Origin: Longispora albida DSM 44784 | GTDB lineage: Bacteria > Actinomycetota > Actinomycetes > Mycobacteriales > Micromonosporaceae | Length of the DNA stretch: 63,020 nt | Assembly (NCBI RefSeq): GCF_000379825.1 | Contig: NZ_KB903833.1 | Span: 1-63,020, forward strand | Reading direction: 5' to 3' | Shown here: positions 31,323 to 62,909 of the stretch, piece by piece | Position numbering within the stretch: position 1 is the stretch's first letter | How the letters are laid out: each line of letters starts with the position of its first letter | Translations under genes and position numbers: made by a program | The notes under the pieces: generated by a model | What the model saw: the letters and a program-made list of their open reading frames with translations, nothing else | What the model was told of the DNA's origin: nothing | The model's database searches: none

Positions 31323-31340
31323 ATATAGGTGTCGTATAGC
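31323..31340 (+). promoter_or_regulatory. Cluster promoter motif 1: ATATAG-N6-TATAGC
   Basis: Two TATAG pentamers (31324-31328, 31335-31339) are spaced exactly 11 bp apart, in an otherwise GC-rich region 84 bases before the chosen NRPS1 start. The same arrangement occurs upstream of the sbnA operon at 41085-41102 and, with one change, upstream of the KAS III operon. It may be a promoter core or the binding site of a common regulator. Confidence 0.55.
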
Positions 31341-31423
31341 GGCCGTTCCTACCGTCCAGCCTGACAGAGGTGTGTCCCGACGAGGCTGGAGCTCGCGATG
31401 TCCGAAGACAGGATGGCTGGCCC

Positions 31424-60676: not shown

Positions 60677-61653
60677 GCCCGATGACCCGCACGACGCTCC
60701 CAAGGATGGCACCGATGGCACGGCACCTCGTCTCCGTCACCGACCTCACCGACGACGACCTGCGCGCCCTGACGGTCCGGGGCGCCGAGTTCGCCGCGGG
60801 CGCCCGCTCGGCGGCCCTCGCCGGGCGGGTCGCGGGGATCTACTTCTCCAAGACCTCGACCCGGACCCGGACGGCCTTCTCGGCCGGCGCGCTCCGGCTG
60901 GGCGCGAGCATCGTGTCCTACGGCCCCGGCGACCTCCAGACCAACACCGGAGAGACCACAGAGGACACTGGCCGGGTACTCTCCGGCATGCTCGACATCC
61001 TCGTCGCCCGCACGGCGGGGGACCAGGCCGAGATGCGCGGCTGGGCCGGGCAGGACCGGATGGCGGTCATCAACGCGATGAGCGCCATCGAGCACCCCAC
61101 CCAGGCGCTCACCGACCTCACCACGCTCTGGCAGCAGTTCGGCCGGATCGATGACCTGTCCATCCTGTACGTCGGCGAGGGCAACAACACGGCAACGGCC
61201 CTCGCTCTCGCGCTGGCCCGCTTCCCCGGGGTGCGCCTCGAACTGCGGACCCCGCCCGGGTACGGCCTGCCATCGGACATCCTGGCCACCGCGCTGGCCA
61301 GCGCGGCACGGACCGGGGCCCAGGTCACCGAACGGCACGACATGGACGAGCTGCCGGGCGACCTCGACGTCGTCTACACCACCCGCTGGCAGACCACCGG
61401 GGCGGCGCACAGCGGGAACGGCTGGCGGGAGGTGTTCGCGCCCTTCCAGGTACGCGAGGAGCTGTGGCAGCGCAGTCCCAAGGCCGTCTTCATGCACGAC
61501 CTCCCGGCCCACCGGGGCGAGGAGGTCACCGCGGAGGTGCTGGACGGACCAGCCAGCATCGCCTTCCGCCAGGCCGAGAACAAGATGCACAGCGCGATGG
61601 CCGTGCTCGAGTGGAGCCGCGCCGATTCCGATGGAGAGGAAAGGCAGTCATGA
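60673..61653 (+). CDS. Ornithine carbamoyltransferase-like enzyme, probable Dap/peptidyl-Dap carbamoyltransferase
   Basis: 326 residues, ATC/OTC superfamily. Carbamoyl-phosphate binding motifs are intact: FSKTSTRTRTAF and EHPTQALTD. Acceptor-binding motifs differ from ornithine enzymes: HCLP is replaced by HDLPAHRGEE and the SMG loop by YTTRWQTTG. The gene overlaps the NRPS2 stop (ATGA) and is far from arginine genes, so a cluster role is likely. By analogy with VioL/CmnL, it may carbamoylate the beta-amino group of Dap to 3-ureidoalanine, free, carrier-bound or in the peptide. Alternative near starts: the ATG codons at 60682, 60706 and 60715. Confidence 0.88.
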   Translation: MSPMTRTTLPRMAPMARHLVSVTDLTDDDLRALTVRGAEFAAGARSAALAGRVAGIYFSKTSTRTRTAFSAGALRLGASIVSYGPGDLQTNTGETTEDTGRVLSGMLDILVARTAGDQAEMRGWAGQDRMAVINAMSAIEHPTQALTDLTTLWQQFGRIDDLSILYVGEGNNTATALALALARFPGVRLELRTPPGYGLPSDILATALASAARTGAQVTERHDMDELPGDLDVVYTTRWQTTGAAHSGNGWREVFAPFQVREELWQRSPKAVFMHDLPAHRGEEVTAEVLDGPASIAFRQAENKMHSAMAVLEWSRADSDGEERQS

Positions 61654-62909
61654 GCATTATCGAGGAATCGGCAGAGGCGGTCGCCCCGAAGAAGCCGGTA
61701 CCACTCGGGCGGAACCGCGACTTCATGCTCCTGTGGACCGGGGCGGGGGTGTCGCACTTCGGTTCCCGGATGAGCGCGATCGCCTACACCCTCGTCGTGT
61801 ACTGGAGCACCGGCTCCAAGACCCTCACCGGCCTGGTCACCTTCGCGGCCCTGCTGCCGTACCTGGTCACCCAGCTCCCGGCCGGCGCCTTCGTGGACCG
61901 CTGGGACCGCCGCAAGGTCATGATCTTCTGTGACCTCGGGCGGATCGCCGCGATCGGCGTCGCCGCCGTCACGGTCTTCCTCGGCCACGTCTGGGTACCG
62001 CTGCTCATGGTGGTGGCCTTCCTTGAGGCCAGCATGACCGTGTTCTACATGCTCGCCGAGCGGGCCGCCGTGTTCACTGTCGTGGACGGCAGCCAGATCG
62101 GCGGCGCGATGGCCCGCAACGAGGCCCGTGGCCAGGCAGCCGGCCTCCTGGGCCAGCCCGCAGGCACCCTGCTGTACTCCGTGACCAAGTGGCTGCCCTT
62201 CGGCACCACGGCCATCGCCCACCTGATCTCGCTGGTGACGCTGCTGTTCGTCCGGGCAGACCTCAAGGTCCAGCGGCGCAACGTGAAGCCGGACATCGTC
62301 GGCGAGGTCAGGGACGGCTTCAAGTTCGTCTGGAGCAAGCTCTACCTGCGCCGGGCCCTGCTGCTGATCTCGCTGAGCAACATCCTCTTCCAGGTGCTCA
62401 GCCTCGGCCTGATCGTGATCGTCAAGGACAACGGCGGCTCGCCGTCCACGATCGGCTTCATCCTGATCATCAACGGCCTCGGTGGCATGGTCGGCGCGCT
62501 GACCAGCAACTTCTTCATGAGCCGGTTCAGCATCCGGTACATCTTCATCGGCGTGAACATCCTGTGGGCCGTCCTGATGCCCGCGATCGCCTTCGCCACC
62601 CACCCGATCGCGCTGGCCGCCATCTACTCCGTGATCATCTACGGCGCCGGAGTGTCCAACGTGGCCGGCATCGTCTACACCATGAAGATCACGCCGGGTG
62701 AGATGCAGGGCCGCGTCGGCTCGATCGCCACCCTGCTCGCCTCCGGCGCCAACTCCCTCGGCGCCCTCGCGGCAGGCCTGATCCTCGCGGCCTTCGTCAC
62801 CAAGACCGCGATCCTGCTGGTGGGTGCGGCGATGACGTGCATCGCGATCCTCGCCATCCTCGGCTTCTCCGGAAAGAAGGCCAAAGAAGCCGACATCCCC
62901 CTCACGTAG
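61650..62909 (+). CDS. MFS exporter (EntS/MFS_3-like)
   Basis: 419 residues, about 12 hydrophobic segments starting after a ~20-residue cytoplasmic leader. NRDFMLLWTGAGVSHFGSRMS and FVDRWDRRKVMI in the first loop are typical of the MFS_3 exporters found beside siderophore and peptide clusters. It starts with ATGA overlap on the OTC-like gene and has GGAGAGGAAAGG upstream. Last gene of operon III; probable job is export of the peptide and so self-protection. Confidence 0.9.
   Translation: MSIIEESAEAVAPKKPVPLGRNRDFMLLWTGAGVSHFGSRMSAIAYTLVVYWSTGSKTLTGLVTFAALLPYLVTQLPAGAFVDRWDRRKVMIFCDLGRIAAIGVAAVTVFLGHVWVPLLMVVAFLEASMTVFYMLAERAAVFTVVDGSQIGGAMARNEARGQAAGLLGQPAGTLLYSVTKWLPFGTTAIAHLISLVTLLFVRADLKVQRRNVKPDIVGEVRDGFKFVWSKLYLRRALLLISLSNILFQVLSLGLIVIVKDNGGSPSTIGFILIINGLGGMVGALTSNFFMSRFSIRYIFIGVNILWAVLMPAIAFATHPIALAAIYSVIIYGAGVSNVAGIVYTMKITPGEMQGRVGSIATLLASGANSLGALAAGLILAAFVTKTAILLVGAAMTCIAILAILGFSGKKAKEADIPLT

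What the first reader, a model, noticed from the sequence alone, without database searches (positions are those of the whole stretch)
31323..62909. NRPS cluster coupling Dap synthesis, carbamoylation and a type II acyl starter line
One cluster combines SbnA/SbnB, an OTC homologue, seven NRPS modules, an MbtH, a KAS III/ACP/FabG/hotdog set, a free-standing C enzyme and a PBP-type release domain. The Dap-plus-OTC combination is known from viomycin/capreomycin, but there it lacks a dedicated short-chain acyl line and the genes VioJ-like dehydrogenase or Cam cyclisation enzymes typical of those are not here. A short-acyl, ureidoalanine- or Dap-containing heptapeptide is a plausible unreported product. 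Gene content is seen directly; the product is inference.
Basis: partly seen in the sequence, partly recalled or inferred. Interest (0 to 1): 0.8.

Follow-up and report, generated by a model that had tools for sequence, protein, structure and literature searches.

The report
Orphan acyl-ureidoalanine peptide assembly line
An actinomycete carries genes that seem to build a short antibiotic-like peptide starting from an unusual urea-bearing amino acid with a small fatty cap, and much the same gene set recurs in related bacteria without a product we could match to it.

Summary
The reading needs three changes. (1) The 'OTC' is not an ornithine enzyme: it carries both motifs published for L-2,3-diaminopropionate transcarbamylase (TRWQTTG, HDLP), so Dap most likely becomes ureidoalanine (Uda). 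The first A domain reads DAWQ[F/C]ATIDK in all 16 neighbourhoods read at 40 kb or more (window included), so Uda is probably residue 1. (2) Four of five C domains of the large NRPS match the dehydrating CmodAA class (McyA, AmbE), but with an altered core motif ([C/S]HxxxEG or SHxxxGG). At least one Thr is probably dehydrated. (3) The cluster is not unique. Six of 12 neighbourhoods from the same bacterial family hold the whole gene set, all with nine modules; other relatives have six or eight. 35 of 80 transcarbamylase loci in named actinobacterial genomes also show the release domain. The window is a rearranged seven-module member with an NRPS-hotdog fusion and a relic A domain. No product was found in the papers searched. 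New variant of a known kind; the C-domain subclade is the most interesting part.

The parts
31370..36613 (+). NRPS 1 (1747 aa): A1-T-C-A2-T plus C-terminal hotdog domain; A1 code DAWQFATIDK (ureidoalanine proposed), A2 code DVWHIAMVEK (unassigned)
36242..36610 (+). hotdog (FabA/FabZ-like) domain fused to NRPS 1; keeps His and Glu of the FabZ-type site (HYPGFPLLPGVYVLE; FabZ site recalled)
   Evidence: the only match in a frame over 1000 aa among 59 matching of 354 genomes
36610..37053 (+). second hotdog protein, FabA-like; by eye lacks the catalytic-His segment, keeps the Glu
37050..37796 (+). FabG-like 3-oxoacyl-ACP reductase
37883..38287 (-). small secreted-looking protein, no Pfam match; relative beside KAS III and FabG in genus-mate G142 (48% over 125 aa)
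38484..39440 (+). KAS III (FabH-like); Cys, His and Asn of the usual triad present by eye
39465..39710 (+). acyl carrier protein (GMDSL)
39715..41073 (+). free-standing condensation enzyme, proposed to acylate the Uda on NRPS 1
   Evidence: between ACP and SbnA in 9 of 12 neighbourhoods
41125..42138 (+). SbnA (Dap biosynthesis)
42120..43145 (+). SbnB (Dap biosynthesis)
43163..43369 (+). MbtH protein
43440..44033 (+). truncated A-domain ORF (ends about motif A3), probably a relic of an older NRPS 1 module 2; start could also be 43422
44030..60676 (+). NRPS 2 (5548 aa): five C-A-T modules and a C-terminal PBP/beta-lactamase-fold domain; codes DVWNVAMVHK, DLPKVAEVGK, DFWNVGMVHK, DVWNIAMVEK, DVWNVAMVHK
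47285..48590 (+). CmodAA-like C domain (donor Thr 3), CHAILEGW
50366..51680 (+). CmodAA-like C domain (donor Asn-like 4), SHAIIEGY
53444..54750 (+). CmodAA-like C domain (donor Thr 5), SHLVTGGW
56516..57870 (+). CmodAA-like C domain (donor residue 6), CHAITEGW
59684..60673 (+). PBP-type release domain in cis, no lipocalin-like domain
60673..61653 (+). L-2,3-diaminopropionate transcarbamylase (OTC fold, motifs TRWQTTG and HDLP)
61650..62909 (+). MFS transporter

Best explanation
A seven-module NRPS line for an N-acylated, ureidoalanine-initiated, partly dehydrated heptapeptide. SbnA/SbnB make L-Dap; the transcarbamylase converts it to ureidoalanine (Uda), a glutamine isostere; A1 of NRPS 1 loads Uda. 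In parallel KAS III, FabG and the two hotdog proteins make one short 2-enoyl chain on the ACP (one elongation round, as no second ketosynthase is in the cluster), and the free-standing C enzyme puts it on the Uda amine. NRPS 1 adds residue 2; NRPS 2 adds Thr, an Asn-like residue, Thr, residue 6 and Thr. CmodAA-like C domains dehydrate the donor Thr (best supported for residue 3) to dehydrobutyrine before condensation. The in-cis PBP-fold domain releases the chain by hydrolysis or by closure onto a side chain, since an acylated N terminus cannot close head to tail; the MFS protein exports it. Shown by sequence: enzyme families, motifs, order, conservation. Inferred: substrates, acyl length and site, dehydration, mode of release, export, product.
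For: Uda: SbnA and SbnB equivalogs; transcarbamylase motifs equal those given for DPTCase in PMC4581275 and it misses the OTC equivalog cut-off (240.9 < 280.85); its gene overlaps NRPS 2 by 4 bp and is in one frame with the release domain in L036, L088 and L111. A1 code DAWQFATIDK in 14 and DAWQCATIDK in 2 of the 16 neighbourhoods read at 40 kb or more (window and 10, 5 more), against 0 of 15 codes (7 distinct, overlapping stretches) from other NRPS of the own genome. Acyl line: hotdog pair, FabG, KAS III, ACP, free C, SbnA, SbnB, MbtH, NRPS, PBP, transcarbamylase and MFS all present in 6 of 12 neighbourhoods. CmodAA: the profile of the four domains scores McyA 259 and AmbE 246 bits, next 166; the ordinary C1 of the same protein scores Txo2 first, 300 bits; in 114 family domains the signature [K/R]SVLLAAH keeps K in 113 and H in 109, and the first Arg of the RR pair is kept in 113; the two ordinary C domains lack it. 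Donor T domains read GGDS in 3 of 4 in the window and 69 of 117 in the family rows (41 GGHS, 7 unread), the type described before dehydrating C domains.
Against: The core motif is altered: first His lost in 112 of 113, Asp kept in only 14 of 113 (Glu 88, Gly 11), whereas DG is said to be strictly conserved in 50 known CmodAA domains. One window CmodAA-like domain follows an Asn-like residue and one an unassigned residue, and no hydroxylase is among the scanned ORFs of the cluster. The window domain after Thr 5 groups with domains of other donors; the one after Thr 3 has Tyr for the signature His. The Asp/Thr-donor association (Fisher p 3.5e-8) vanishes in independent pairs. A codes are motif-aligned, not measured; two of seven are unassigned. 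Of five further 20-kb transcarbamylase loci fetched (L040-L044), none showed the A1 code: L043, whose enzyme is only 53% identical, reads DAFQVGVINK and DLPKVAEVGK, the other four gave no readable code. The six complete relatives are five genomes of one genus and one of another, so not six independent cases. A PBP-type enzyme joins an N-terminal L and a C-terminal D residue, and no E domain is here.
Confidence: 0.5

Rival explanations
1. Head-to-tail cyclic heptapeptide: the PBP-type domain acts like SurE on a free Uda amine, and the short acyl chain goes elsewhere, for example onto the side-chain amine of an unconverted Dap at residue 2 or 6 (codes ending in VEK), as GE23077 carries an acylated Dap (recalled).
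For: [quoted passage not shown] Ser and Lys are invariant and an H-x-G His nearly so. Codes DVWHIAMVEK and DVWNIAMVEK carry an acid where the Thr-like codes have His. The four six-module relatives end in DILQLGVIWK, a Gly-type code (recalled), and biffamycin also ends in Gly.
Against: No E domain; the last residue in the window is Thr-like. The lipocalin-like domain is missing. Sequence matches place DD-peptidase and other beta-lactamase-fold proteins above SurE; the fold match to SurE is rank 13, with similar TM-score. The free C gene stands between ACP and SbnA also in relatives whose codes, as far as read, show no VEK.
Confidence: 0.2
2. The CmodAA-like domains are plain condensation domains of CmodAA descent; the product is an acyl-Uda heptapeptide without dehydro residues.
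For: Asp replaced by Glu or Gly in 99 of 113; most donors are not Thr-like (19 Thr-like, 36 DLPK, 45 other of 100 read); no gap for an extra gene is evident in the six complete runs, though hydroxylases as such were not searched for.
Against: The residues described as CmodAA-specific (K/R and H of the helix, RR pair) are nearly invariant and absent, for the helix, from the two ordinary C domains of the window, which read HHIASDG and HHIASDA.
Confidence: 0.25
3. The window copy is a decaying or freshly rearranged locus that makes little or nothing.
For: NRPS 1 sits upstream, fused to the hotdog, and a relic A domain lies where relatives keep NRPS 1.
Against: The reading frames named in parts are open, those listed have third-position GC of 0.89 or more (one spurious 116-aa frame apart), motifs are intact and coupling overlaps remain.
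Confidence: 0.1

Closest known systems
Uncharacterised clusters in Micromonosporaceae, Streptomyces and other Actinomycetota found here (G285, G246, G273, G222, G226, G324 and others)
   Same: Same gene set and order from hotdog to MFS; same A1 code; PBP domain at the NRPS C terminus beside the transcarbamylase
   Different: Nine modules (G090 eight; G142, G334, G335, G337 six) instead of seven; NRPS 1 after MbtH and hotdog free; residue 2 and later codes differ
Viomycin/capreomycin (tuberactinomycin) clusters
   Same: Dap from SbnA/SbnB-type enzymes (CmnB and CmnK are PDB relatives) and a Dap transcarbamylase
   Different: No VioJ-type dehydrogenase found; acyl line, CmodAA-like C domains and in-cis PBP domain present; Uda proposed as residue 1
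Zwittermicin A (Bacillus)
   Same: Dap transcarbamylase giving ureidoalanine
   Different: PKS/NRPS hybrid; other architecture (passages read, rest recalled)
CmodAA dehydrating C domains (AmbE, AlbB, McyA, Crz1-C2)
   Same: Best profile matches and CmodAA signature residues
   Different: [C/S]HxxxEG or GG in place of HHxxxDG; Cys at the first His is reported for FclJ-C2 and Zmn17-C2, side-chain conjugating domains
PBP-type thioesterases (SurE; in cis in biffamycin BifB)
   Same: Beta-lactamase fold, SxxK, HxG
   Different: No lipocalin-like domain; by my reading no Tyr at the YxN place in 24 of 24 sequences aligned; no D residue set up before it

Membership tests
L-2,3-diaminopropionate transcarbamylase (DPTCase) | (T/S)RWQTTG in place of DxxxSMG | tested here: met
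   TTRWQTTG in the window and in all 10 relatives aligned; motif from PMC4581275
L-2,3-diaminopropionate transcarbamylase (DPTCase) | HDLP in place of HCLP | tested here: met
   HDLP in the window and in all 10 relatives aligned. The review notes that Dap and Dab enzymes are hard to tell apart (TRWQTTG against TRWQSMG)
L-2,3-diaminopropionate transcarbamylase (DPTCase) | activity on Dap | not testable with these tools
   needs enzyme assay
Ornithine carbamoyltransferase | equivalog score and DxxxSMG | tested here: not met
   240.9 bits under 280.85; no SMG
SbnA/SbnB Dap pathway | TIGR03945 and TIGR03944 cut-offs | tested here: met
   415.9 and 391.1 bits
CmodAA condensation domain | closest to AmbE/McyA among solved C domains | tested here: met
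   259 and 246 bits, next 166; control
CmodAA condensation domain | [K/R]SVLLAAH helix and RR of motif C6 | tested here: met
   K 113, H 109, first R 113, second R 91 of 114; window K 4 of 4, H 3 of 4; absent helix in the two ordinary C domains
CmodAA condensation domain | DG of HHxxxDG, strict in 50 known members | tested here: not met
   window 3 EG and 1 GG; family D 14 of 113. So I call them CmodAA-like, not members
CmodAA condensation domain | dehydration of the donor residue | not testable with these tools
   needs enzyme assay
PBP-type thioesterase (SurE family) | PBP fold with Ser-Lys and His | tested here: met
   S51 and K54 invariant, H284 at least 90% in 24 sequences; model pLDDT 91.9 and fold matches
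PBP-type thioesterase (SurE family) | C-terminal lipocalin-like domain | tested here: not met
   protein ends with the PBP domain; feature from PMC11735501
PBP-type thioesterase (SurE family) | C-terminal D residue (Gly in biffamycin) | tested here: inconclusive
   no E domain; Thr-like last code in window, Gly-type code in the four six-module relatives
Tuberactinomycin cluster | VioJ-like dehydrogenase and capreomycidine enzymes | tested here: not met
   no such family in the ORFs scanned

The most novel reading that the evidence does not exclude
The [C/S]HxxxEG domains are a new functional class of modifying condensation domain used in series, which does beta-carbon chemistry on Thr and Asn donors (dehydration followed by amine or amide addition, as proposed for the Ser/Asn-derived pyrimidine of bleomycin). 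Ten of the 13 lines read (G142, G334, G335, G337, G285, G246, G273, G222, G226, G324; not the window, G090 or the part of G321 read) carry Thr-Asn-Asn codes with such a domain after each residue, so these acyl-Uda peptides may have cross-linked or heterocyclic, perhaps metal-binding cores made by the C domains themselves.
Probability: 0.15. Interest if true: 0.75.

Novelty: new variant of a known kind. Interest (0 to 1): 0.52.

Why it matters
It points to a widespread orphan family of actinobacterial peptides with one probable starting unit (acyl-ureidoalanine), which makes products searchable by mass. It also gives 114 C domains that keep most of the CmodAA signature but change the core motif, many of them after residues that cannot simply lose water: a handle on what modifying C domains really do. 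In-cis PBP domains without the lipocalin part would be new peptide-release tools.

Tried and rejected
Rejected: OTC making citrulline (motifs and cut-off). Rejected: a tuberactinomycin cluster (no such dehydrogenase). Weighed and dropped: GE23077 as the product; one review passage was read, the search for its cluster listed five papers of which only that one was opened, and the composition does not fit (recalled). Stenothricin was looked at for carbamoyl-Dap and not supported by the passages read. A paper on S. scabies mentions an SbnB near an SbnA homologue and an NRPS without naming a product. The Fisher test for Asp with Thr donors was overruled by the independent-pairs test (5 pairs on starred branches, sign test p 1).

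Literature searches for a product, without a match in what I saw of them; side questions: 17 (GE23077), 75 (bleomycin). Only open-access PMC papers are held, and only part of the listed papers were opened. Papers seen as passages only: PMC11735501, PMC10951976, PMC12283262, PMC12400406, PMC13285481, PMC10880069, PMC4392301, PMC4581275, PMC11479980; PMC11342130 as passages plus its whole section 8; all others as listing and abstract starts.

Dropped or unread rows: one search found 117 CmodAA-like domains, merged them to 114; 14 have no readable donor code and one has a gap at the motif. miss the last module of G285, G246, G273, G222 and G226 (8 of 9 codes read) and one inner module of G324; all 8 of G090 and all 6 of the six-module lines were read. 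In one search only 9 of 80 loci show the A1 code, as the 10-kb flanks seldom reach NRPS 1; for the same reason most of the 20-kb loci do not. The count of 65 of 354 genomes is mine, by eye, from the listing at E of 1e-80 or better, own genome included. The secreted protein and hotdog sites, the KAS III triad and the YxN place were read by eye.
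Full report
Check of the observation. The window is the first 63,020 bases of a 611-kb contig (G000 C20). NRPS 1 (31370-36613) is A-T-C-A-T with a C-terminal hotdog domain that appears only when scanned alone. Then follow a second hotdog protein, FabG, a - strand gene for a small secreted-looking protein, KAS III, ACP, a free-standing C enzyme, SbnA, SbnB, MbtH, a truncated A-domain ORF, NRPS 2 (five C-A-T modules plus a PBP-fold domain, 44030-60676), a transcarbamylase and an MFS transporter. 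To the left lie genes such as glutamate synthase and pyruvate kinase, to the right ABC transporters on the - strand.

The transcarbamylase. phmmer finds OTCs as the best solved relatives, but the protein has MHDLP and TTRWQTTG where OTCs have HCLP and DxxxSMG. A review of the family gives these as the marks of L-2,3-diaminopropionate transcarbamylase, cites the viomycin and zwittermicin clusters, and says homologous genes are found in most Streptomyces; it also warns that Dap and Dab enzymes are hard to tell apart. The window protein and 10 aligned relatives share both motifs. With SbnA and SbnB beside it, the product is most likely ureidoalanine.

Where ureidoalanine goes. A-domain codes were read by aligning to motif positions (positions of the PheA code are recalled). 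The window reads DAWQFATIDK, DVWHIAMVEK, DVWNVAMVHK, DLPKVAEVGK, DFWNVGMVHK, DVWNIAMVEK, DVWNVAMVHK. VHK codes are Thr-like (DFWNIGMVHK stands in the Thr section of PMC12283262), DLPK is Asp/Asn-like (DLTKVGHVGK and DLTKIGEVGK stand in its Asp/Asn section; passages). The first code is the same in 14 of 16 neighbourhoods read at 40 kb or more and differs by one letter in the other two (G353, G240). All 16 hold the transcarbamylase, but they were chosen for it. As a control, 0 of 15 codes from other NRPS stretches of the own genome (7 distinct) show it. Against: of five more transcarbamylase loci of 18-20 kb (L040-L044) none shows it; L043, with an enzyme 53% identical, reads DAFQVGVINK and DLPKVAEVGK, the other four gave no readable code. 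Uda is a glutamine isostere and the code looks Gln-like (recalled), so I assign residue 1 to Uda.

The acyl line. KAS III, FabG, the hotdog pair and the ACP can make one round of elongation, giving a short 2-enoyl chain such as crotonyl or a branched homologue; no second ketosynthase is in the cluster. The free C gene stands between ACP and SbnA in 9 of 12 neighbourhoods (not in G334, G335, G337, where no ACP or KAS III match was found), which fits transfer of the acyl group to the first residue. One hotdog domain keeps the His and Glu of FabZ, the other only Glu, as in heterodimeric dehydratases (recalled; sequences).

The odd C domains. C2 to C5 of NRPS 2 carry CHAILEGW, SHAIIEGY, SHLVTGGW and CHAITEGW in place of HHxxxDG. 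One of them searched alone and the profile of all four find McyA and AmbE first by a wide margin. The ordinary C1 and the free C do not. AmbE and other CmodAA domains dehydrate the residue on the donor carrier. The helix [K/R]SVLLAAH and the RR pair described for CmodAA in PMC11342130 are nearly invariant in 114 such domains from the window, 10 neighbourhoods and 80 loci; the helix motif is absent from the two ordinary C domains of the window, which read HHIASDG and HHIASDA. But the first His is lost in 112 of 113 and Asp is replaced in 99 of 113, against strict DG in the 50 published members. On a tree the domains cluster by donor type (11 changes, shuffled mean 46, 0 of 200 as low), while the link between Asp and Thr donors has no support from independent pairs. 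I therefore call them CmodAA-like, expect dehydration of Thr 3 (its domain lies nearest to Thr-donor domains) and hold the other three open.

The release domain. The last 330 residues are modelled as a class C beta-lactamase/DD-peptidase fold (pLDDT 91.9). Foldseek ranks 2qmi and R61 DD-peptidase first and SurE 13th, with TM-scores close together (about 0.75-0.80 on the query). Ser and Lys are invariant and the His nearly so in 24 sequences; by my reading the Tyr of YxN is absent in all 24; the lipocalin-like domain of SurE is missing. A cis SurE domain has been reported for biffamycin. Without an E domain, and with an acylated first residue, head-to-tail closure is not the default.

Distribution. 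The transcarbamylase occurs at E of 1e-80 or better in about 65 of 354 genomes of the same family (my count). A scan of named genomes gave 266 matches, of which the best 80 were kept, from Streptomyces, Micromonospora, Phytohabitans, Actinomadura, Kribbella, Actinoallomurus, Kineosporia and others; 35 of these 80 show the PBP domain. Of 12 neighbourhoods read more fully, six hold the whole set with nine modules (G285, G246, G273, G222, G226, which share one genus, and G324). G090 (eight modules) lacks hotdog, FabZ2 and FabG in the stretch taken, G142 (six modules, same genus as the window) lacks hotdog and FabZ2 hits, G334, G335 and G337 (six modules) lack KAS III and ACP hits, G321 lacks hotdog, FabZ2, PBP and NRPS 2 in its stretch. 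In L036 (G337), L088 and L111 the transcarbamylase lies in one stop-free frame with the PBP domain.

What is special in the window. In the complete relatives NRPS 1 follows MbtH and the hotdog is a separate gene. Here NRPS 1 has moved in front and is fused to the hotdog; among 59 genomes with a hotdog match of 354 searched only the window has it in a frame over 1000 aa. Between MbtH and NRPS 2 lies a 197-aa A fragment whose six best-scoring proteins include NRPS 1 of G090, G246, G285, G324 and G273, matched at the second A domain, so it looks like what is left of an older NRPS 1. This is a member with a replaced or moved first synthetase.

Verdict. Ordinary biosynthetic logic in a combination that is widespread but, in the searches made, undescribed. 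The starting unit is well supported, the acyl cap fairly, dehydration partly, release mode and product not.

Noticed in passing
43440-44033: Truncated A-domain ORF coupled to NRPS 2, best matched by module 2 of NRPS 1 in relatives; sign of replacement or move of NRPS 1.
   Followed up: partly
37883-38287: Secreted-looking small protein without Pfam match on the opposite strand; 48% identical relative beside KAS III and FabG in genus-mate G142. In G285, G246, G273, G222 and G226 a FabG-like SDR on the opposite strand sits there.
   Followed up: partly
L036:5177-10105: NRPS module, PBP domain and Dap transcarbamylase in one reading frame (G337); L088 and L111 likewise from PBP to transcarbamylase. 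Long frames listed for G332-G335 were not checked.
   Followed up: partly
G142, G334, G335, G337, G285, G246, G273, G222, G226, G324: Thr-Asn-Asn codes with CmodAA-like domains after each residue, recalling the Ser-Asn-Asn run of bleomycin (recalled).
   Followed up: no
L025:13175-18337: C and A domain matches split into two pieces in G324 (Phytohabitans suffuscus), possibly a frameshift or sequence error.
   Followed up: no
G000 C2:523-538 kb and C23:66-80 kb: Two other large NRPS regions in the same genome (frames of 5047 aa, and 2076 plus 3592 aa).
   Followed up: no
L073, L076, L139: Loci with a free C enzyme directly before the transcarbamylase and no PBP match: a sister layout in Actinoallomurus soli, Actinoplanes utahensis and a Streptomyces.
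   Followed up: no
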